Shown: positions 2,005 through 13,352 of the stretch, in pieces | Numbering within the stretch: position 1 is the first letter of the stretch | How the letters are laid out: every line of letters begins with the position of its first letter | Assembly: GCF_008086115.1 (NCBI RefSeq) | Contig: NZ_VSIY01000013.1 | Coordinates: 124,001-188,000, forward strand | Direction: 5' to 3' | Source: Maritimibacter fusiformis | GTDB taxonomy: Bacteria; Pseudomonadota; Alphaproteobacteria; Rhodobacterales; Rhodobacteraceae | DNA: 64,000 bases | Program-made: the position numbers and the translations under genes | Notes under the pieces: model-generated | The model's database searches: none | The model's input: the letters and a program-made list of their open reading frames with translations, nothing else | What the model was told of the DNA's origin: nothing

Positions 2005-3828
2005 TCATGAGAGAATATCCCCTTTCAAATCACTGACCCGATAGAAGTCAATGCCAACCTCGGCCCCGCTCAACGCGGGGCGAACGCGGTGCCGCTTCAG
2101 CCGACGGACTACCTCCCCGATCTGCAGATCATGCTGTTCAGCGAGTCTGGCCGGATGGGTGAACCGGCCCTTGAATTCCGCCACCGTCGCCGGGTCGAAC
2201 CGCGGGATCCGATGTCCACCTGACGGACCAACGATCCAGTCGACGGCCAGGCTCACGTCCTCCGGGCACCGGTCCACCAGGCCCCACCCGGTGTCCTTCG
2301 GAATCTTGAGCGCACCGAAAGCTTCCATGGGCGAGAGCCCCGTCGTGCAGGCCGCCGCGTGGTGCTTGACCTCGGCCGTGTCCACCCGCAGCGCAGTGAT
2401 CCCGCCCTCACCAGTCAGGCGAACCACGCGCTTGAGGAACCCGCCGAGGATCATGTGTACCACAGTAATGGCCGGCACCTTGGCCTTTTCCGCGGCTTTC
2501 GAGACCGGCACCAGCCCGTCGGTCTCGGCCCCCAGTTCGGTTGCTTTCGCGTGCAGATCGCCAACCAGCATGGCAACCTCCTCGCGATCCACGGCCTTCT
2601 GGATCCGCCCCTTCAGTCCCGGCCGTTCGGAGTAGATGGGTGTGAGAAGCCGATCGGCAAAAAGCTGATCGACGAGGGGTCGACCACAACCCAACACGTC
2701 AGGCAAGGAAACAACATGCACTATCCGCTTCGTTCGGGCCGCGATCTCCCGGCCCCTGGCCACAGGGATGGGGTAATGGGCCGAGGCCTTCTCAGGCAGT
2801 ACTCCGGCAGCAATCAGCACGTTGCCCAGAGCCCTCGAGTCAAGCTGCTGCTCCTTGGCAAGGGAAGCGAGCGTGTGCAGGCGGCGTTCGGGGAGTTCCA
2901 CACCGAGCACCTTGGTTCCGGCCGGCAGGGCGATGCTCTCAGTGATGACGTCGCGAAGGATCCGCGCGATGTCCCCGGGTTCCTTGAGCGATTTCGAGTG
3001 CGCAATGGCTTCATAGAAGCGCCCGAATATCTTGCGCGCCCCGGGTGTCCCGGTTGCATCATCGAATTTCCTGAGCTGAGCCTCCAGAGCTTCCCGGATG
3101 CCCTGCTCGCCGCGCGACGTGAATTCAAAGCCCACACGCCCGGCGCGGTCCCAGTCATCAGAGGTCAGCTCCGGCAATTTCTGCGCCGGGCCGAAGGCAA
3201 CCAGTACGCCCAGAAGCTCTGTCGCACGGGTTGCCTGATCCAGCGTTTGCGAATCCAGCCAATCGGAGCCAGTATTCCCGTCGAGGCGACGCAGGACATA
3301 GTCCTGGAGCGGCGAAACCGAGCGGTGCACTGCCCTCTCGATCATCTTCTGAAGCTCAGCGCCGCGCTCGGGCACCCGGCGATCAAGTTCGTGAAACTTG
3401 TCATCCCACGCAATTGACGCCTGGCGCAGGAGCGGGATCTGGTGATGCTGACAGGTTCGCACGACCGACAGCGTCCACGTCCAACGCCCGCGGCGAATGC
3501 CGGTCTCGTCATCCCTTGCCAGACAGGCCGGACAAAAGACCGTGTAGGGATTTGCGAGGAACTCCGCGGTGACCAGCTCACCCCGGATGTCGTATAGGCG
3601 TTTCCCGACCGGAATTGCGGCATTCGCGCACAGGTCCTCGACAGCCACTCCTGCGATCTCGGCGAGGCGCGAGACAGCAGTTCTGTCATTGACCGCCATT
3701 TGGTCTGGCGAAATGCCGACATCGCGAAGAAACGAGACCAGCCGATCACCGGTGTGGAGCCTGGCAAGGCACGCCGCATATGACAGCGGACTCTCCTCGG
3801 GATGAAAAGGGAAATGAGGGACGAGCAT
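2005..3828 (-). CDS. tniQ: TniQ/TnsD-like target-selection protein
   Basis: A 607-residue TniQ-family protein. The N-terminal TniQ domain is recognised by the opening PHFPFHPEESPLSYAACLARLH, and a zinc-binding set follows: Cys99, Cys102, Cys126, His128/129. TniQ proteins of Tn7-like elements bind the target site and recruit TnsC. The length is closer to TnsD (sequence-specific chromosomal targeting) than to the short TniQ of CRISPR-associated elements, so a site-specific target is expected. The long C-terminal half (about 250-607) probably contains DNA-binding repeats. Its start overlaps the tnsC stop (TGATG). Confidence 0.85.
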   Translation of the reverse strand: MLVPHFPFHPEESPLSYAACLARLHTGDRLVSFLRDVGISPDQMAVNDRTAVSRLAEIAGVAVEDLCANAAIPVGKRLYDIRGELVTAEFLANPYTVFCPACLARDDETGIRRGRWTWTLSVVRTCQHHQIPLLRQASIAWDDKFHELDRRVPERGAELQKMIERAVHRSVSPLQDYVLRRLDGNTGSDWLDSQTLDQATRATELLGVLVAFGPAQKLPELTSDDWDRAGRVGFEFTSRGEQGIREALEAQLRKFDDATGTPGARKIFGRFYEAIAHSKSLKEPGDIARILRDVITESIALPAGTKVLGVELPERRLHTLASLAKEQQLDSRALGNVLIAAGVLPEKASAHYPIPVARGREIAARTKRIVHVVSLPDVLGCGRPLVDQLFADRLLTPIYSERPGLKGRIQKAVDREEVAMLVGDLHAKATELGAETDGLVPVSKAAEKAKVPAITVVHMILGGFLKRVVRLTGEGGITALRVDTAEVKHHAAACTTGLSPMEAFGALKIPKDTGWGLVDRCPEDVSLAVDWIVGPSGGHRIPRFDPATVAEFKGRFTHPARLAEQHDLQIGEVVRRLKRHRVRPALSGAEVGIDFYRVSDLKGDILS

Positions 3829-4802
3829 CAGCGCGCACCCTGCCCGAACAACTGGGCCTCACCGAGATCGATCCTGGCCCAGTGGCGGGCAAGAAAGACG
3901 TTCTGACCCATGCCGCAACCTTCCTGCATGCCCCAGCTCTCGGCGAAATGGTTGATTGTCAATTCATCGGCATCCACCAGGGCCGCCGCCTCGAGCGCCG
4001 CGAGGATGTTTTCGATACAGCGGCCGAAACGGTTGCGGCTCGCGTGAACGAGACGATCCACCAGATCCTCGTCCGACGGCGGCTGCACGCCGACCGCGTT
4101 GCAGAAACCGGCGATGACCTTGGTCAAGGCATTGCGATCCGAATGCGGCGAAACATCCCCAAGAGGCAGCCGCCAGTAGCGGCGGGTGACCTGGGCATCG
4201 CAGGAAGCGATCTGCCAGAGGCTTTCAACACCGCTCAGCACGACGCTGACGGCACCGTCCCCCTGCATCAGGTTGCGGACGGTCTTCAGGAAGACATCGA
4301 CCTTGAACTTGCTCCCAGCGCCGAACAGGTCATGCGCCTCATCGATCCACAGGATCGCCGTCCCACGGAGTCTGAAATGGTGCCGCACCTTGCGCATGAT
4401 ATCGTCCTCGGTCTGTGACCGGGAGACGGACGGGTACCCGCTGGCGCTGAGGATCTCGATCCCCAGGCTCTTGGCGGTGGCCGGGCTGGGCACACGCACC
4501 CCGACCCATGGCTGATGTGCCGCGTCGCGCGGCTGCAACGCCGGATGAGTCTTCAGGCCATGATGCACCAGCGAGGTCTTGCCCCCGCCGGCGGGCTCCA
4601 CCACGGCGATGCCGCGTGCATCGCCGGCCTTGTTGAAGAGGCGGGGCTTCGGAAGCAGGTTTCCCTGCTCATCGCGCTGCAGCAGCCGGTCCAGGTAGCT
4701 ACGGAACTGAGCGTCCCGCGGGGTCGAGAGGTACTTGTCTCGCAGCCGGTCCACGGCTGCGAGTTTTTCGTTGATGGTGAGAGTTGATGCAGTCATGGTC
4801 AT
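3828..4802 (-). CDS. tnsC: TnsC/TniB-like AAA+ transposition regulator
   Basis: A 324-residue AAA+ ATPase that should assemble on target DNA and pass TniQ's choice of site to the transposase. Walker A is GGGKT (about residue 72-76 from the 4802 start) and Walker B is ILWIDEAHDLF. The frame allows an earlier start at 4820, but ATG at 4802 overlaps the tnsB stop (ATGA) with GGAGG just upstream; ATG at 4796 is a further option. Size and motif order match TniB/TnsC of Tn5053- and Tn7-like elements. Confidence 0.9.
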   Translation of the reverse strand: MTMTASTLTINEKLAAVDRLRDKYLSTPRDAQFRSYLDRLLQRDEQGNLLPKPRLFNKAGDARGIAVVEPAGGGKTSLVHHGLKTHPALQPRDAAHQPWVGVRVPSPATAKSLGIEILSASGYPSVSRSQTEDDIMRKVRHHFRLRGTAILWIDEAHDLFGAGSKFKVDVFLKTVRNLMQGDGAVSVVLSGVESLWQIASCDAQVTRRYWRLPLGDVSPHSDRNALTKVIAGFCNAVGVQPPSDEDLVDRLVHASRNRFGRCIENILAALEAAALVDADELTINHFAESWGMQEGCGMGQNVFLARHWARIDLGEAQLFGQGAR

Positions 4803-7018
4803 TCGTCCTCCAGGGTCCAATCGTCGCCGTCATCAGCCACGTCGGCATGATCGCCCGGCTGATGAGCGGGAAATTGGATCGCGCTGAAACCGCCGGAAGC
4901 AGAATCTTCCGCGCTGGTTTGATTTTCGTCGGCGTTGTCGTCCGAGGGGGTGCAACCGGCCGTGGCAAGGCGCGTCCCCCATTCGTCCCGGGCCCCGTCA
5001 TAGGGGTTCTCAGGCTCCGTCTCCGAGGTCTTGAACCCGATGAACAGGCGGTCTTCCTCGTAGTCCATGCGCTTCTCGGACCAGTCTTCCATGATGAGCC
5101 CGACGCGGGTCATGGCATCGCTGTTGGTTTTCTTGATGAAATCGAGCGCTTGGCGAACCACGGCAAAGTTGACTTCGGCGTTCCTGGCATTTTTCGCTCG
5201 GATCTCGGCCGCCGCGTGCAGCCATTCCTGCGCACAGACGCCTTGATACCGATCGAACACGGCGGGGATCTCGAACCAGCGCCCATTCAGCTCGGCCCAG
5301 ATGGCGCCGATGTCCTCGGGATACCACCGGATCGAGACCTTGCGCTCCTGCGCCCTGGTCATGAACCGGGCCAGGATTTCCGAGTGATAACGGACCCCGA
5401 GGATGGTGATCCCCTGACGGGTCACGGTGCGTTCCCGCTCATGGCCGAAAATCAGGCGCCGACGACCGAGGTCCGGCGGTGGCTGGACACCGAATTTCTC
5501 GACCAGCCGGTTCCAGCAGTCCAGCGGAGTTTCCCCATTCAGCCCGCGGTGCGGGGTGCGATGGTAAATGTCCACGATGTAGCGAACCAGGACCGAACAG
5601 AACTCTTCCGGGTTGAGCGCTGCACGTGCCACCGAGTCGTAATCCCCCCGCTCGACGGTGTTGCTGAAGGTCCGCCCACTCAGCCGGGGCATAAGTTTGG
5701 TCGCGAATGTGCCGAACACGCGCTCGATCCTGCCCTTCGATTCCGGAGGGGCAGCGGCGCAATACTGCAGCGTGATGCCGAGGTCGGACACGCGCGCCTG
5801 GACAAGGTTCGAGATGTTGTAGCTCACACAGTCGGTCACGATGAACGAAGGCCAGCCGAACTGGTTCCAGGGCGTGAGACCGCCGTAGGCATCTCCCCAC
5901 ACACCCTTGTCGCGCATCATCATTTCGATGACCCGGAGTGCGCTCTGAGAGTTGGGCTGCCGGGAGATCACCATGCCGACAATGCACCGCGTCGCACAGC
6001 AGATGGCCACGGTGATCCACCACCGGGCCTTCTTCTTGTCCAGCCCGAGGGCCTTCTTTTCCTCCTCCGTCAGGTGATGAAACAGCCCACCTTCGGCCAT
6101 GAGGGTAATCGCATCGACCTCCCACTCGTCGAACTCGACACGTTGCATCGGGCGCGTAATATCAAGCCCCATGCCGACGGGTGCGAACTGCCGGTTTGCA
6201 GCCTCCCGGCCTTTGCGGGTCAGGGTCACGTCGAAAGGGTTGAGCTTCCGGATGGCCTGCCGCACCGTCTCACGGGACGGGCAGAGGATTTCCGGCTCGC
6301 TGGCGGCCCGGCGACGCTCATTCTCGGCGAGGAAGGCGGTTTTGACCTCTTCGAAGACGATGGCCTGCGACGGGCGCTGGATGTTGAGATACTTGCTCAC
6401 GACCTTGCCCATGATCATCAGTTCATCGGCTGTCATTCGGCGGTCCCGATTACCGCGTTCGGAGATCCTGTCGTAAAGGCCTGCCAGACCGAAACGTCTC
6501 TCCTTCCGCTCCCATTCGAGCACGGTCTTCGCGCCCAGATCTTCAGGTACAGGCAGATCTTTGCCACGATCTTCGGGCGAACCCTCCCGCTGAATCTTTG
6601 CGGCACGCAGCTTGATGGCATCGAGGTGAGGTTTGACGGAATTCGCGGTGCGCTTGATGTCCGTTTTATCGTCGTTCAGAAGCTCACGGAACGCATGTAC
6701 AACAGACATCCGCATCGCGGCCTTTTTCTGGGCTTTGTGGCCCCTGAGGGAAAGCAGCTCACCATTCGGCAGAAAGCGCTTCCGCAGATGCTCGGGCTGA
6801 TGTTGGTTCGGAGTGCACTTAAAGTTTCCGACCGTGAGATAACGGCTGATTTCGGCGTTGGTCATGACCTGAGGCACGCCCTTGCCCGTCGCCGCGACGA
6901 ACATATGGCCATCTTCGCGGGTCTCGAAGTAGCGGAAAGGCTGCCCTCCGATCACGATACCATCGTATTCCGAGAAGGAGAACTTGGGCTGAACGGGGCT
7001 GGGTTTGACGGCGTTCAT
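4799..7018 (-). CDS. tnsB: TnsB/TniA-like DDE transposase
   Basis: A 739-residue transposase of the Mu/TnsB/TniA group with an integrase-core domain and Mu C-terminal domain. Catalytic residues are recognisable: Asp297 (EFDEWE), Asp396 (IVTDC) and Glu432 (KGRIERVF), giving the D-x35-E spacing of the superfamily. The N-terminal 250 residues carry helix-turn-helix regions expected to bind the terminal repeats. In Tn7 systems TnsB joins the 3' ends to the target. The start overlaps the upstream tnsA stop (ATGA), implying fixed stoichiometry of A and B. Confidence 0.92.
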   Translation of the reverse strand: MNAVKPSPVQPKFSFSEYDGIVIGGQPFRYFETREDGHMFVAATGKGVPQVMTNAEISRYLTVGNFKCTPNQHQPEHLRKRFLPNGELLSLRGHKAQKKAAMRMSVVHAFRELLNDDKTDIKRTANSVKPHLDAIKLRAAKIQREGSPEDRGKDLPVPEDLGAKTVLEWERKERRFGLAGLYDRISERGNRDRRMTADELMIMGKVVSKYLNIQRPSQAIVFEEVKTAFLAENERRRAASEPEILCPSRETVRQAIRKLNPFDVTLTRKGREAANRQFAPVGMGLDITRPMQRVEFDEWEVDAITLMAEGGLFHHLTEEEKKALGLDKKKARWWITVAICCATRCIVGMVISRQPNSQSALRVIEMMMRDKGVWGDAYGGLTPWNQFGWPSFIVTDCVSYNISNLVQARVSDLGITLQYCAAAPPESKGRIERVFGTFATKLMPRLSGRTFSNTVERGDYDSVARAALNPEEFCSVLVRYIVDIYHRTPHRGLNGETPLDCWNRLVEKFGVQPPPDLGRRRLIFGHERERTVTRQGITILGVRYHSEILARFMTRAQERKVSIRWYPEDIGAIWAELNGRWFEIPAVFDRYQGVCAQEWLHAAAEIRAKNARNAEVNFAVVRQALDFIKKTNSDAMTRVGLIMEDWSEKRMDYEEDRLFIGFKTSETEPENPYDGARDEWGTRLATAGCTPSDDNADENQTSAEDSASGGFSAIQFPAHQPGDHADVADDGDDWTLEDE

Positions 7019-7689
7019 TTGGACATCCTCCGGCGGACATGGGCCTCGTGCGTAATGCGCACGTTGAGTGTGAGTTCGAGTTCGTGAGAGCGGAGCAGGC
7101 GAACCACGGCCCGGAACCCGCGCGCTCCGAGGCCGATTGCCTCGACCAGATCCTGGACCCGGACAGAGCCGACGATCTCGCCAAGGAGTCTCCGTGCGGC
7201 AGCGTCTGCATCGGGATCGGGACGACGCATCTCATGCATCATCTCGGCATTGAAGTATTCCACGGGGTCGATGTCACGCTCGGTCATCACGACGACCGCG
7301 TCGGCAAAGCTCCGAGGAACCCGAGCCGCGACTTCCGCAAGCTCGTTCTGAACCTTGGCTTGGCGGCGGCGAAATTCCGACTTCACCATGATCGCGACGC
7401 GCTTGCCGTCGGCCATCAGGGCGCGGAAGTCGAAAAAGTGCTTGCCGATTTCCCCGTCGGCCTCGAGCCACTGAAAGAGCACTTGGCTTTCGATCCCAGC
7501 CACATCCGGGCGGGCGAGGAGGACAAGCATGCACTTCATTTCGGTGTTGCTGTCGTAGCCCACGGTGTAGCCCTCATCGGGGTCCATCGTGACCTGTCCA
7601 GTTTGGTGTTCCCGGGCACCGACGGCCGTTTTACGTGCAGTCTGCACGCGCTCCGGCATCGTGATCCCGCCATCCGGCATCTTCATCAT
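7015..7689 (-). CDS. tnsA: TnsA-like PD-(D/E)XK endonuclease (first gene of the transposition operon)
   Basis: A 224-residue protein coupled to tnsB. A TnsA-type nuclease core is visible: Glu50 (SNTE), Asp87 (FFDF) and Lys103 in a hydrophobic strand ending IMVK, i.e. E...D...xK, with Gln69 and Glu67 nearby. TnsA cuts the 5' ends of Tn7 so that transposition is cut-and-paste. The last ~90 residues contain a winged-helix-like stretch that would contact TnsC, as in Tn7. The motif reading is by eye, so the assignment rests partly on gene order. The start has AAAGGAA 8 bases upstream. Confidence 0.65.
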   Translation of the reverse strand: MMKMPDGGITMPERVQTARKTAVGAREHQTGQVTMDPDEGYTVGYDSNTEMKCMLVLLARPDVAGIESQVLFQWLEADGEIGKHFFDFRALMADGKRVAIMVKSEFRRRQAKVQNELAEVAARVPRSFADAVVVMTERDIDPVEYFNAEMMHEMRRPDPDADAAARRLLGEIVGSVRVQDLVEAIGLGARGFRAVVRLLRSHELELTLNVRITHEAHVRRRMSK

Positions 7690-8278: not shown

Positions 8279-8415
8279 TGGCAAACCGAATTGAATGGTA
8301 TAGGTTTGAATCCCCGGTGGCCCGCGTCCGCGATCCGTTTTTCGACGAATCAGCGGCTTCCGCGAAGACCGATCACGATGACGATGACGATGGCGATGGG
8401 CACGGGTCACGGTTG

Positions 8416-8481
8416 CCAGGGCAAGGGCAAGGGCAAGGGCAAGGGCAAGGGCAAGGGCAAGGGCAAGGGCAAGGGCAAGGG
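8416..8481 (+). repeat. Hexanucleotide tandem repeat, (CAAGGG) x10 plus one variant unit
   Basis: Ten perfect CAAGGG units run from 8422 to 8481, preceded by a variant CCAGGG and by a GATGAC-rich tract (about 8379-8398). It lies between the transposon end and hsdM. No convincing coding frame runs through it, although it is open in two frames as Gly-Gln or Gly-Lys dipeptides. Copy number is likely unstable by slippage. Confidence 0.9.
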
Positions 8482-8660
8482 ATCTGTCGGCGCGCCAGGA
8501 AACACTTGCAACAACTTCAGAAGGCCAAGCCTGCGGTCAGGCCCCTCCTTTCACGAAAAGCGGCAATTTCCTTGAGGAAGCTCGGCATTTCCGGTCATAT
8601 CGCCTTGGAAACGAAAGAGCGCCGCCCCGAGTGCAGCGCCGCGAAGAAACGAGGCGCAGC

Positions 8661-10943
8661 ATGGCGATCAAGAAAAGCGACATTTACCGTTCTTTATGGG
8701 AGAGCTGTGATCAGCTCCGGGGCGGAATGGATGCCTCGCTCTACAAGGATTACATCCTTACCCTGCTCTTCGTGAAATACATCTCCGACCGGGCCGGGCA
8801 ACCTGACGCCCTGATTGAGGTGCCGGAAGGATGCTCGTTCGAAGACATCCGCAAGCTGCGCGGCACTAAGGACATCGGCGAAGGCATCGACACTGCCATC
8901 GCCGGGATTGCCGAGGCGAACGACCTCAAGAACGTGATCGATCGGGCCTATTTCAACGATACCGAGAAATTCGGGCGCGGGCCCAAGATGGTCGCGACGC
9001 TCACCGCGCTCATCAACATCTTCAGCCGCGAGGAGCTGAACTTCAGCCGCAACCGGGCGGATGGCGACGACATCCTCGGCGATGCCTATGAATACCTGAT
9101 GCGGAACTTCGCCACCGAGTCCGGCAAGAGCAAGGGCCAGTTCTACACGCCTGCCGAGGTCTCACGCGTTGTCGCCGCGGTCGCCGGCGTCAACCGTGCC
9201 ACCAGCCCCAAGCAGACCGTCTACGACCCCACCTGTGGTTCAGGCTCTCTCCTCCTCAAGGCCGCCGACGCCGCCGATGTCAGCCTGACCATCTACGGTC
9301 AGGAAATGGATATCACCACCCGCGGCCTCGCCAAGATGAACATGATCATGCACGGGCGCGAGGATGCCGAGATCGCCCAGGGCGACGTCATCGGCGAGCC
9401 GCAGTTCAAGGCCTCCGAAACCGAACTCCAGACCTTCGACTTCGTAGTCGCCAACCCTCCGTTCTCGGCCAAGGCCTGGGGCGCGGGCCTGACCAGTGAC
9501 AACAAATTCGGCCGCTTCGACCTTGGCATGCCGCCCGACAAGAACGGTGACTTCGCCTTCTTGCTGCACATCCTGGGCTCCATGAAAGCCACCGGCTCCG
9601 GCGCGGTCATCCTGCCCCATGGCGTGCTCTTCCGCGGCAACAAGGAGGCCGAGCTTCGCCAGAAGATCCTGAAGCGTGGTTACATCAAGGCGATCATCGG
9701 CCTGCCGGCGAACCTCTTCTATGGCACCGGCATCCCCGCCTCGATCATCGTGCTCGACAAATCCGGCGCCTGCGCGGAGCGTCCCGTCTTCATGATCGAA
9801 GCCTCGCGCGGCTTTGCCAAGGACGGCAACAAGAACCGCCTGCGCGAGCGTGATATTCACAAGATCACCGATGCCTATACCCGGCAGGGCGAGATCAAGG
9901 GCTACTCCCGGCTCGTCCCCTACGCCGAGATTACCCGCAACGATTTCAACCTGAACATCCCGCGCTACATCGACGGCTCCGACTCCGAGGATCTGCAGGA
10001 CATCGAGGCGCATCTGAAAGGCGGCGTGCCGAACCGCGACATCGACCTGCTGGCCGAGTTCTGGGATGTCATGCCGGGTGTGCGGTCCATGCTTTTCGGG
10101 CCGAACCCGCGCCCGGGCTATTCCGACCCGCTGATCGCGCCGGAGGAGGTCCGCACCACCATCCGCAACCATCCCGAATTCGACGCCTTCAGAACTCAGG
10201 TTCAAACCATCCTCGACGGCTGGGCCGGGCAGAACGCGCCGCTGATGGATGGCATCCAGGTGGGCGACACGCCCAAAGCGCTGATCCACACCATTGCCGA
10301 GGACATGCTGACCCGCTTTGCCGAGGCGCCGCTCATCGACCAGTATGAGGCCTATCAGCGTCTCATGTCCTACTGGGCGGACACCATGCAGGACAATGTT
10401 TTCATCATCGCCCACGATGGTTGGGAAGCGGCCAAAGAACTGCGCGAGGCGCGCAAGGAGGTCGATGGCAAAAAGGTCAAATGGCTGGAAGAGGCCGACC
10501 TGACCGTGAAAAAGGTGCGCCTTGTGGCGGATGTCATCCCGCCCCGGTTGATCGTCGCCCGTTTCTTCCCCGAGATGCAGCGGGCGCTTGATGACGCGCA
10601 GGCCAAGGCCGAGGAACTGGCCCGCGAGATCGAGGAGATGGTCGAGGGACACGGGGCCGAGGGTGGTCTGCTGGCCGATGCGCTGACCGAGGCGGGCAAG
10701 CTGACCGCCGCGTCGGTCAAGGCGCGGCAGAAATTCGGCGAGGCCGAGCCGGAAGAAGCAAAGCTGCTGAAACAGGTGGCCAGGCTGATGACGGCCGAGA
10801 CGGCGGCAAAGAAGGCGGCCAAGGAGGCCGAGGAGGCACTGACCGAGGCCACTCTGAAGAAATATCCGGACCTGGACGGGACGAACCTCCTTGGACCTGG
10901 CAGAACAGCGTCATCGTCGCCCGCCGCGCCCGGCCAGAGCTAA
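8661..10943 (+). CDS. hsdM: Type I restriction-modification DNA methyltransferase subunit (HsdM), 3' end truncated
   Basis: An N6-adenine methyltransferase subunit. The N-terminal helical domain begins IYRSLWESCDQLRGGMD; SAM-binding motif I is DPTCGSG (189-195) and catalytic motif IV is NPPF (265-268). ATG at 8661 is chosen over an in-frame start 30 bases upstream because GAGG precedes it and the family begins there. The usual sequence after KKYPDL near residue 740 is replaced by an unrelated 20-residue tail, so the C-terminus is lost. No hsdS or hsdR follows, so methylation would need a specificity subunit from elsewhere. Possibly still expressed but probably not functional alone. Confidence 0.85.
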   Translation: MAIKKSDIYRSLWESCDQLRGGMDASLYKDYILTLLFVKYISDRAGQPDALIEVPEGCSFEDIRKLRGTKDIGEGIDTAIAGIAEANDLKNVIDRAYFNDTEKFGRGPKMVATLTALINIFSREELNFSRNRADGDDILGDAYEYLMRNFATESGKSKGQFYTPAEVSRVVAAVAGVNRATSPKQTVYDPTCGSGSLLLKAADAADVSLTIYGQEMDITTRGLAKMNMIMHGREDAEIAQGDVIGEPQFKASETELQTFDFVVANPPFSAKAWGAGLTSDNKFGRFDLGMPPDKNGDFAFLLHILGSMKATGSGAVILPHGVLFRGNKEAELRQKILKRGYIKAIIGLPANLFYGTGIPASIIVLDKSGACAERPVFMIEASRGFAKDGNKNRLRERDIHKITDAYTRQGEIKGYSRLVPYAEITRNDFNLNIPRYIDGSDSEDLQDIEAHLKGGVPNRDIDLLAEFWDVMPGVRSMLFGPNPRPGYSDPLIAPEEVRTTIRNHPEFDAFRTQVQTILDGWAGQNAPLMDGIQVGDTPKALIHTIAEDMLTRFAEAPLIDQYEAYQRLMSYWADTMQDNVFIIAHDGWEAAKELREARKEVDGKKVKWLEEADLTVKKVRLVADVIPPRLIVARFFPEMQRALDDAQAKAEELAREIEEMVEGHGAEGGLLADALTEAGKLTAASVKARQKFGEAEPEEAKLLKQVARLMTAETAAKKAAKEAEEALTEATLKKYPDLDGTNLLGPGRTASSSPAAPGQS

Positions 10944-11288: not shown

Positions 11289-12191
11289 TTATTCACCAGC
11301 AAGCAAGTCTACTTTCAACCCTGCGTAGTTTGTCTTGCCTGCAAGAATATCGACAAAGACCTGATTTCGTTTGGCGGCGCGATCTTTCAGTCGGTCGAAC
11401 GCCAAAACCTCAACCATTACGTTACGCATAGTATAATAATTGTAAGCCATCGGTCCCCCAAAGTTTGTGATCTTAAAATCGTTGTCTTTGAGGTATCGCT
11501 CAAGGTCAGCGTTCCAGTCTGCAATCACATAGCCACGGACCATGGTTTCGGGGGAGACCACGATCTTTCTGCCACCAGAAGTCGTAATGCCGCCGTAGTC
11601 CCGAATTTCACCCACCTGACTTATCAGCTGTTGGACGGGATTATCGGTTGGGTGATCTGCTTCCTCCGCGATATCATACTTAGCTTTCTGGGGACGCTTC
11701 ATTTCAACAAGTAGAAGCTCGTTGTCATTATTTACCAAAATGTCATGGGCATACGAGCCTTTTCCTCGATGCTTACCTTTCGGAGTTCTGTCACTGGAGA
11801 TGTATTCAGCATAGGCAAGGTCATCATCGATCAGCCATAGGTTATGCGCGGAATAGTCAATTTCTTCGCTATCCTTGTACCGTGGATAGACAAGCTGATG
11901 TACTGCGTCTTCTTTTGCGATGGTGCCATCTTCTTTTCGATTGAGCATCTCGGAAAGGACTTTGATTACGTCATTTCGGTAGGCCACATAGACTGCTAAA
12001 GCTTCCTTGGCGTCAGCCGTGATGTTATTTCGGACAACACTCTGGAGGTCTTCGTAGGGCGTTTCCGAGTTGATCTTACGGAAATCAAACTTGCTCCTGA
12101 GACGTGCGACGAACAAGTCTTGAGCAAGCTGCTCTTTGGATTCGAGAATTGCTCTTTCCTCTACAAACTCATTCAAGCTTTTTCCGCCCAA
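11289..12191 (-). CDS. PD-(D/E)XK nuclease-like protein; probably the C-terminal half of the adjacent ATPase gene
   Basis: A 300-residue frame with a restriction-endonuclease-like core: Asp150 (AHDILV), Glu163 and Lys165 (LLLVEMKRP), followed by a QLISQV helix typical of the fold. It begins at a TTG with a poorly spaced AGAGG. More telling, the same frame continues upstream without interruption to a TAA at 12222-12224 that ends the ATPase frame, so the two were probably one protein of about 690 residues. Composition is clearly AT-richer than the neighbours, a sign of recent acquisition. No named defence family is assigned. Confidence 0.6.
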   Translation of the reverse strand: MGGKSLNEFVEERAILESKEQLAQDLFVARLRSKFDFRKINSETPYEDLQSVVRNNITADAKEALAVYVAYRNDVIKVLSEMLNRKEDGTIAKEDAVHQLVYPRYKDSEEIDYSAHNLWLIDDDLAYAEYISSDRTPKGKHRGKGSYAHDILVNNDNELLLVEMKRPQKAKYDIAEEADHPTDNPVQQLISQVGEIRDYGGITTSGGRKIVVSPETMVRGYVIADWNADLERYLKDNDFKITNFGGPMAYNYYTMRNVMVEVLAFDRLKDRAAKRNQVFVDILAGKTNYAGLKVDLLAGE

Positions 12192-12221
12192 ACCTCTTCG
12201 CAGAATTGGATCAAGCGCGAT

Positions 12222-13352
12222 TTACTCCTCAACCTGCGCCTGCATCACTTTCCGTCTGCGTCCTGTGTAGTCAGGTTCCAAGGTGAGAATGTGTGCTTTC
12301 GCCTCAGCAGCCAAGGCATCTTTTAGCTTTTTGTCAGATTTGCCATGGGTAATCTTCACATTGAGGTTTTCGATTTTGTCACGAGACTGAGTCGCCTTGA
12401 AGTACGAGCTACTGACTGCAACGAGATAATTATATCGGCGACCATTCTCGTCTTCGAATGCAGTTTCACGAAGGCCCTTTGCGATGTTCTCCAAGTCGCT
12501 TGTGGCTCTGTTATCTGCATAGAAATAGAGACTATGCCGCTTCGACTTTTCGGCATCAATCGTCATAAAGTTGAATTTGAACTCAAACGTCTCACCTTCG
12601 ACCTCGAGAACAACGCTCTTCTCATCTCGAACGACTACACTTTCCGAGAAATATTTAGCCAGGTTGAATTTTGCATCGGCAATTTCAAAAATGAAATTCT
12701 TGGGTGCTTTTCTCTGAACAAAGTCCAGCAGGAAATGGTCCAGCACTGCGGTCAAGATCGACTCTTCTGTGTGGCCTTCATCAACGTCCGGACCGGAAAA
12801 ATTAAAGTACTTACAATATTCCTCAAGCGGATTTGCAAATACTACAGAAAGGCCACTCGAATAGGCATGACGCTTGATCAGCGCAGATTCGTCGATTTCC
12901 TCCAAGTTGTCAAAATCGCTGAGTGGCTTGTACTCAAATACCGCGTTGCTTTGGCTTCCGTCCTCGAAAGTGGTTGGCGATGAATAAAATACGCGGTCAA
13001 AGATCTTGAACGAAATAAAGCGGCCGAACCCTTTACCGTTTCTTCGAAGCTTGTTGCCGGTGAACGGCGTAAGAAATGCTATGAGGTTCTCCTTGTTGAA
13101 CCCCTCGCCGTTGTCTTCAACTGATATTCTTTTGTTATCAACGTCAAACTTTACACGAACGAAACCCTTCTCGTAGGCTTCTTCCCCATATTTGTCTTCT
13201 ATGGAGTGTAGTGAATTAGTAATCGCTTCAAACAGAGGATAAAGAAAACCAGTCAATTGAGATGGTAATGACGCTCGCTTTATCTCTGAAGCCAAATCCA
13301 ATCTACGGTGTTTCAAATTGCACCTCACTCGACAAGCTCTGCAAGGGTCCAC
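12222..13352 (-). CDS. GHKL (HATPase_c) ATPase, probable defence protein, ended by in-frame TAA
   Basis: A 376-residue GHKL-fold ATPase domain of the Hsp90/MutL/MORC type. The N box is FEAITNSLHSI (Glu42, Asn46), the G1 box DNGEGF (80-85) and the G2 box NGKGFGR (105-111). No kinase phospho-acceptor or sensor domain is seen, so it is not a histidine kinase. The GTG at 13352 is weak; a TTG at 13319 behind GTGAGGTG is an equally likely start. The stop at 12222 is followed in the same frame by the nuclease frame 11289-12191, suggesting a nonsense mutation in a single ATPase-nuclease gene. It is AT-rich and lies beside hsdM. Confidence 0.65.
   Translation of the reverse strand: MDPCRACRVRCNLKHRRLDLASEIKRASLPSQLTGFLYPLFEAITNSLHSIEDKYGEEAYEKGFVRVKFDVDNKRISVEDNGEGFNKENLIAFLTPFTGNKLRRNGKGFGRFISFKIFDRVFYSSPTTFEDGSQSNAVFEYKPLSDFDNLEEIDESALIKRHAYSSGLSVVFANPLEEYCKYFNFSGPDVDEGHTEESILTAVLDHFLLDFVQRKAPKNFIFEIADAKFNLAKYFSESVVVRDEKSVVLEVEGETFEFKFNFMTIDAEKSKRHSLYFYADNRATSDLENIAKGLRETAFEDENGRRYNYLVAVSSSYFKATQSRDKIENLNVKITHGKSDKKLKDALAAEAKAHILTLEPDYTGRRRKVMQAQVEE

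What the first reader, a model, noticed from the sequence alone, without database searches (positions are those of the whole stretch)
11289..13352. Probable single-gene GHKL ATPase-PD-(D/E)XK nuclease defence protein interrupted by one stop codon
The ATPase frame ends at TAA 12222-12224; the very same frame stays open through IALDPILRRG into the nuclease frame, with no competing ribosome-binding site. Together they give about 690 residues with N, G1 and G2 boxes and a D150/E163/K165 nuclease core. The AT-rich composition and position beside hsdM suggest a defence gene. I do not recognise the combination as a named system. The stop could be a mutation, a sequencing error, or a recoding/two-subunit arrangement.
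Basis: partly seen in the sequence, partly recalled or inferred. Interest (0 to 1): 0.75.

Follow-up and report, generated by a model that had tools for sequence, protein, structure and literature searches.

The report
Broken GHKL ATPase-nuclease phage-defence gene
This is one member of an already described family of single-gene bacterial proteins (an ATP-driven clamp joined to a DNA-cutting domain, shown elsewhere to block phages), and in this genome it is cut in two by a single stop codon that no relative shares, so it is most likely an ordinary damaged copy or a base error.

Summary
On the minus strand one frame runs from 13352 to 11289, interrupted only by TAA at 12224-12222. The true start is probably TTG 13316. 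Full-length homologues span the join: 76 of 80 fetched relatives are one uninterrupted ORF. All 13 close intact relatives have leucine where the window has the stop. No relative is split at that point; the five other broken copies are broken elsewhere. Both halves of the window protein keep the family's invariant residues, so the stop is recent or an error, not a conserved two-subunit or recoding design.

The family is not new. Its parts (GHKL motifs, a second beta domain, a C-terminal E-D-ExK nuclease) match paraMORC3 (Iyer 2008). They also match the architecture of VcSduA, a GHKL-headed Shedu protein shown to restrict phages (Nat Microbiol 2025). Profile comparison puts the nuclease domain closest to Shedu's SduA_C (hhalign 94.9%), ahead of HsdR_N (79.9%), although the curated SduA_C model itself does not match the window. 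The window belongs to a standalone alphaproteobacterial branch. The gene is foreign in composition (GC3 0.50 against 0.62-0.88 nearby). Verdict: a new, probably inactivated member of a known kind.

The parts
11289..13316 (-). Whole gene: GHKL ATPase - beta/helical middle region - PD-(D/E)XK nuclease, interrupted by one in-frame stop
   Evidence: One frame; start TTG 13316 matches the start position of 12 close relatives and has an upstream GTGAGGTG; full-length homologues
12225..13316 (-). Upstream half, 364 codons: GHKL ATPase and second (S5-like) domain, ending inside the helical linker
   Evidence: Pfam HATPase_c 28.8 bits; full-length relative's AlphaFold2 model matches Hsp90/TRAP1
13215..13229 (-). 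N box E30-x3-N34 (FEAITN)
   Evidence: Invariant in 52 relatives
13101..13115 (-). G1 box D68-N-G-x-G72
   Evidence: D68, G70 and G72 invariant
13017..13037 (-). G2 box G94-K-G-F-G-R-F100
   Evidence: Invariant
12222..12224 (-). In-frame TAA (codon 365); leucine in all 13 close intact relatives
11292..12221 (-). Downstream half, 310 codons: rest of linker and nuclease domain
   Evidence: C-domain model pLDDT 88.2, pTM 0.84
11292..12044 (-). PD-(D/E)XK nuclease domain used for the model and for profile comparison
   Evidence: Foldseek: McrC, E. coli SduA 8ps5, BspD6I; hhalign to SduA_C set 94.9%
11910..11912 (-). Conserved E469 (E of E-D-ExK), followed by H473
   Evidence: Invariant in 53 sequences
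11742..11744 (-).
   Evidence: Invariant
11697..11705 (-).
   Evidence: Invariant

Best explanation
A horizontally acquired, standalone paraMORC3-type / Shedu-like anti-phage gene. When intact, the protein most likely works as a homodimeric clamp: ATP binding by the GHKL domains closes the clamp on DNA through the second (S5-like) domain, and a helical linker passes this to the C-terminal PD-(D/E)XK domains, which then cut invading DNA. In this assembly a nonsense codon in the helical linker separates ATPase from nuclease, so the copy is probably inactive, through a recent mutation or a base-call error. Shown here: gene layout, homology, motif conservation, and the uniqueness of the stop. Inferred: ATP gating, DNA as target, defence role, inactivity.
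For: 76 of 80 relatives are one ORF across the join. The stop column is leucine in all 13 close relatives. The window keeps 65 of 67 columns that are at least 90% conserved in the family, and 215 of 227 close-clade invariants, equally in both halves. ATPase match to HATPase_c. Full-length model matches Hsp90/TRAP1, the GHKL plus middle-domain fold. C-domain model has PD-(D/E)XK enzymes on top (McrC, SduA, BspD6I). hhalign to SduA_C 94.9%, E 4.8e-8, with controls HsdR_N 79.9% and the ATPase half 0.1%. Weak HSDR_N/PDDEXK_9/NERD/SduA_C matches among members. Defence-rich neighbours: type I R-M and Shedu, CBASS-type genes, RnlAB, Abi, MmeI-helicase-GIY-YIG operons, and a temperate phage carrying a copy beside its integrase. 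Gene GC3 0.50 against 0.62-0.88 in six nearby genes. VcSduA, of the same architecture, needs both its ATPase glutamate and its nuclease lysine to restrict phages (PMC12137116).
Against: The curated SduA_C model does not match the window. Foldseek E-values for the C domain are marginal (best 0.005; none below 0.001). The full-length model has moderate confidence (pTM 0.51). No experiment exists on this clade. The VcSduA sequence itself was not held, so direct homology to it was not measured.
Confidence: 0.85

Rival explanations
1. The stop is a sequencing or assembly error and the organism carries an intact gene.
For: Both halves keep their conserved residues with no sign of decay: N and C halves of the window are as similar to relatives as the intact L028 is. 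Only one assembly of this organism is held.
Against: No read data available. Several large neighbouring ORFs are intact, so the assembly is not generally error-ridden. Real lesions occur in this clade.
Confidence: 0.25
2. Two-subunit arrangement: the ATPase ends at TAA and the nuclease is re-initiated as a separate, cooperating polypeptide.
For: GAGGAG directly precedes the stop; TTG 12176 has a weak G-rich stretch upstream. GHKL proteins can work with separate nucleases (MutL-MutH; established knowledge, discussed in PMC2292703).
Against: None of 80 relatives is split at the join. No canonical start within 30 bases of the stop. The stop falls inside a predicted helix of the intact relative (residue 369 region, helix 351-371), not at a domain border.
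Confidence: 0.05
3. Programmed read-through or recoding of the TAA.
For: The frame stays open and conserved beyond the stop.
Against: No relative has a stop there. TAA is the stop least prone to read-through (general knowledge). No special context was found: the region's inverted repeats are long-range and imperfect.
Confidence: 0.02
4. The family is a housekeeping or DNA-repair ATPase-nuclease (MutL-like), not defence.
For: Standalone, without a fixed partner in this clade; GHKL-nuclease logic resembles MutL.
Against: Patchy distribution (7 of 385 class genomes), plasmid and temperate-phage carriage, foreign composition, recurrent defence neighbours, published anti-phage activity of the same architecture (PMC12137116).
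Confidence: 0.08

Closest known systems
paraMORC3 family (Iyer, Abhiman & Aravind 2008, PMC2292703)
   Same: N-terminal GHKL, second S5-like domain, C-terminal restriction-endonuclease-fold domain with E-D-ExK; widespread, patchy, mostly proteobacterial and Bacteroidetes; one subset in R-M operons, another standalone
   Different: The window's branch is a distinct standalone alphaproteobacterial clade (22-31% identity between its intact member L017 and the distant members), and this copy has a stop codon
VcSduA, GHKL-headed Shedu (type I-D) of Vibrio cholerae WASA (PMC12137116)
   Same: GHKL ATPase then PD-(D/E)xK nuclease in one protein; N-box Glu and ExK Lys at comparable positions (E27/K557 there; E30/K540 here)
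   Different: VcSduA is described as carrying the DUF4263 signature; the window does not match that Pfam model.
Shedu SduA (SduA_C, PF14082; E. coli SduA 8ps5)
   Same: Nuclease core with the same order of invariant residues (E, D, ExKxP, Q) and a similar C-terminal [ST][FY]D-x-L stretch; hhalign 94.9%; Foldseek rank 2
   Different: N-terminal region is an ATPase here, not the SduA N-terminal domain; Pfam model not matched
MutL / MORC / Hsp90 (GHKL ATPases)
   Same: GHKL plus second-domain clamp layout
   Different: No fused PD-(D/E)XK nuclease in those families (general knowledge)

Membership tests
paraMORC3 | N-terminal GHKL ATPase with intact N, G1 and G2 motifs | tested here: met
   HATPase_c 28.8 bits; invariant motifs
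paraMORC3 | S5-fold domain following the GHKL domain | tested here: inconclusive
   The full-length relative's model matches Hsp90/TRAP1 over GHKL plus middle domain, but pTM is 0.51 and the domain was not assigned on its own
paraMORC3 | C-terminal RE-fold domain with conserved E-D-ExK | tested here: met
   E469, D525, E538-x-K540 invariant; PD-(D/E)XK enzymes top the fold search
paraMORC3 | R-M operon (SF2 helicase, methylase) or standalone in proteobacteria | tested here: met
   Distant clade: MmeI-type MTase + DEAD/ResIII helicase + GIY-YIG + this gene; window clade standalone
Shedu (SduA_C / DUF4263) | Match to PF14082 over its curated cut-off | tested here: not met
   No match for the window at E <= 1; 4 of 53 relatives weak, best E 0.01
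Shedu (SduA_C / DUF4263) | Nuclease core homologous to SduA_C | tested here: met
   hhalign 94.9%, E 4.8e-8, catalytic residues aligned; closer than HsdR_N; 8ps5 second in Foldseek
Shedu type I-D (VcSduA) | Direct homology to VcSduA | not tested
   Sequence not held in the collections used; only architecture and residue positions compared
Shedu type I-D (VcSduA) | Anti-phage activity dependent on ATPase and nuclease residues | not testable with these tools
   Needs phage challenge

The most novel reading that the evidence does not exclude
In this organism the gene is really used as two polypeptides, or by regulated read-through, so that nuclease output is throttled: a lineage-specific split of a normally fused ATPase-nuclease immune protein.
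Probability: 0.04. Interest if true: 0.6.

Novelty: new member of a known kind. Interest (0 to 1): 0.25.

Why it matters
It resolves an open first-stage finding into a known defence architecture. It also links the 2008 paraMORC3 family to the Shedu nuclease branch by profile comparison, and adds a standalone alphaproteobacterial clade, plasmid copies and a temperate-phage copy as intact candidates for testing. The window's own copy is of little functional interest because it is probably broken.

Tried and rejected
Viral contig scans for close relatives gave none. PDB sequence searches gave no useful match for either half or for the family profiles. PADLOC has no model for this protein; the weak DUF3644 hits (E 0.0016-0.011) were taken as chance, as they match only 2-3 members. 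A conserved partner gene for the window's clade was sought by all-against-all comparison of flanking ORFs and not found. A shared in-frame stop was suspected in one class genome (G420, TAG reported) and rejected: the copy is intact within the homologous stretch. The Shedu structural papers cited by PMC12137116 are not held (for the one tried).

Full report
Observation. The minus strand of 11289-13352 holds a 376-codon stretch, TAA at 12224-12222 and a 310-codon stretch in the same frame. The N-terminal half matches HATPase_c (28.8 bits, cut-off 26.4). The natural start is TTG 13316, which aligns with the ATG/GTG/TTG starts of 12 close relatives and follows GTGAGGTG. The stop is codon 365 of the read-through frame.

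Homologues span the join. Plasmid records hold three close full-length relatives annotated as one ATPase or ATP-binding protein (44-47% identity in the N half, 62-63% in the C half). The genome scan gave 80 loci; 76 are a single ORF across the join. In all 13 close intact relatives the residue at the stop position is leucine. Four fetched loci and one class-level genome are broken, each at a different place: L027 nonsense at residue 221 plus a frameshift near 566-570, L029 frameshift at 501, L030 frameshift near 201-216, L069 internal loss of about 138-444, and L111 between 198 and 281. So there is no conserved split and no conserved stop.

State of the window copy. It keeps 65 of 67 columns conserved in at least 90% of the family, and 215 of 227 close-clade invariants (80 of 85 in the N half, 135 of 141 in the C half; the stop column is one of the 12 differences). 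Its N/C identities to relatives mirror those of the intact nearest relative L028, a Paracoccus. The stop is therefore recent or an error; these data cannot tell which. Reinitiation is not excluded but is poorly provided for: GAGGAG abuts the stop, then ATC; the next in-frame starts are TTG 12191 and TTG 12176.

Domains. Invariant across the family are E30, N34, D68, G70, G72, GKGFGRF (94-100), R270, and in the C domain E471, H475, D527, E540, K542 (L017 numbering). Window equivalents are E469, H473, D525, E538 and K540. The AlphaFold2 model of the window's C domain is good (pLDDT 88.2, pTM 0.84). Its best PDB matches are PD-(D/E)XK enzymes: McrC, E. coli SduA (8ps5) and BspD6I, all with marginal E-values. 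A full-length relative's model (pLDDT 79.6, pTM 0.51) matches Hsp90/TRAP1, as expected for a GHKL ATPase with its middle domain; the stop falls in the helix that follows.

Which known kind. Iyer et al. 2008 (PMC2292703) defined paraMORC3 as GHKL-S5 proteins with a C-terminal RE-fold domain carrying E-D-ExK, some in R-M operons and some standalone. Adams, Blokesch and colleagues (PMC12137116) showed that VcSduA, a GHKL-PD-(D/E)xK protein which they place in Shedu type I-D, restricts phages, and that mutating the ATPase glutamate or the nuclease lysine abolishes this. The window protein has the same architecture. The Pfam SduA_C model does not hit it. A profile of its C domain aligns with 14 SduA_C-type domains at 94.9% probability (E 4.8e-8, 173 columns, catalytic residues in register), against 79.9% for HsdR_N and 0.1% for the ATPase half as negative control. 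I therefore file it as paraMORC3 and call it Shedu-like; formal Shedu membership is left open.

Setting. In a large distant clade, 13 loci share an upstream operon: a MmeI-type methyltransferase, a DEAD/ResIII helicase and a GIY-YIG protein, then the GHKL-nuclease gene. The window's clade is standalone, placed with the Paracoccus copy L028 in a fully supported 15-row clade. Relatives sit beside type I R-M and a Shedu gene on a Vibrio fluvialis plasmid, CBASS-type genes, RnlAB and Abi genes. One lies next to the integrase of a temperate phage. The window gene has GC3 0.50, against 0.62-0.88 for six other genes nearby, and lies beside a type I methyltransferase gene.

Mechanism. Most likely ATP-driven dimer closure of the GHKL domains gates a DNA nuclease, as proposed for VcSduA. 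The architecture and motifs are shown here; gating, DNA target and defence are inferred from the cited work. The window copy most likely yields only the ATPase part.

Novelty and score. New member of a known kind, probably inactivated; interest 0.25. The only reading that would raise this, a real lineage-specific split or read-through, has about 4% probability.

Noticed in passing
L149 2485-4509 (phage vB_RanS_PJN03, ON245412.1): A 674-aa intact member of this family, next to the integrase of a temperate phage, is annotated as N-acetylmuramoyl-L-alanine amidase; the family HMM matches it end to end (E 2.9e-111).
   Followed up: yes
L046, L057, L058, L063, L065, L078, L082, L084, L087, L091-L093, L096, upstream of the match: Conserved operon of MmeI-type methyltransferase, SF2 helicase and GIY-YIG (T5orf172) protein, then the GHKL-nuclease; an Abi_C-type gene is inserted in L058, L082 and L096.
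   Followed up: partly
L131 1-1941 (+) and L132 1324-3141 (-): Proteins with a different kind of GHKL ATPase (ELVDN N box) and a C-terminal domain found by the SduA_C search (L131 over the cut-off, L132 below it): a second GHKL-Shedu combination.
   Followed up: partly
L010 6610-10004 (Vibrio fluvialis plasmid): A Shedu gene and a GHKL-nuclease gene overlap by 4 bases, directly behind type I R-M genes, suggesting one operon with two related nucleases.
   Followed up: no
L027, L029, L030, and L069, L111: Three of 16 close relatives and one of 64 distant ones in the genome scan (plus L111) are broken, all at different positions (Fisher p 0.024). The sample is biased by the score cut and drafts may hold errors, but repeated loss would fit a costly nuclease.
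   Followed up: partly
window 2005-7689 (-): Transposition genes: TniQ, TniB-type AAA and Mu/TnsB-type transposase, plus a 224-aa ORF of unknown family at the position where a TnsA would lie. No element ends were determined.
   Followed up: no
window 8631-10943 (+): Full-length type I methyltransferase (hsdM) with no hsdR or hsdS recognised among the neighbouring ORFs scanned; the genome's only HSDR_N match lies on another contig (C1:29637-29852).
   Followed up: partly
window 8415-8487: About a dozen tandem copies of a GGGCAA-type hexamer shortly upstream of hsdM.
   Followed up: no
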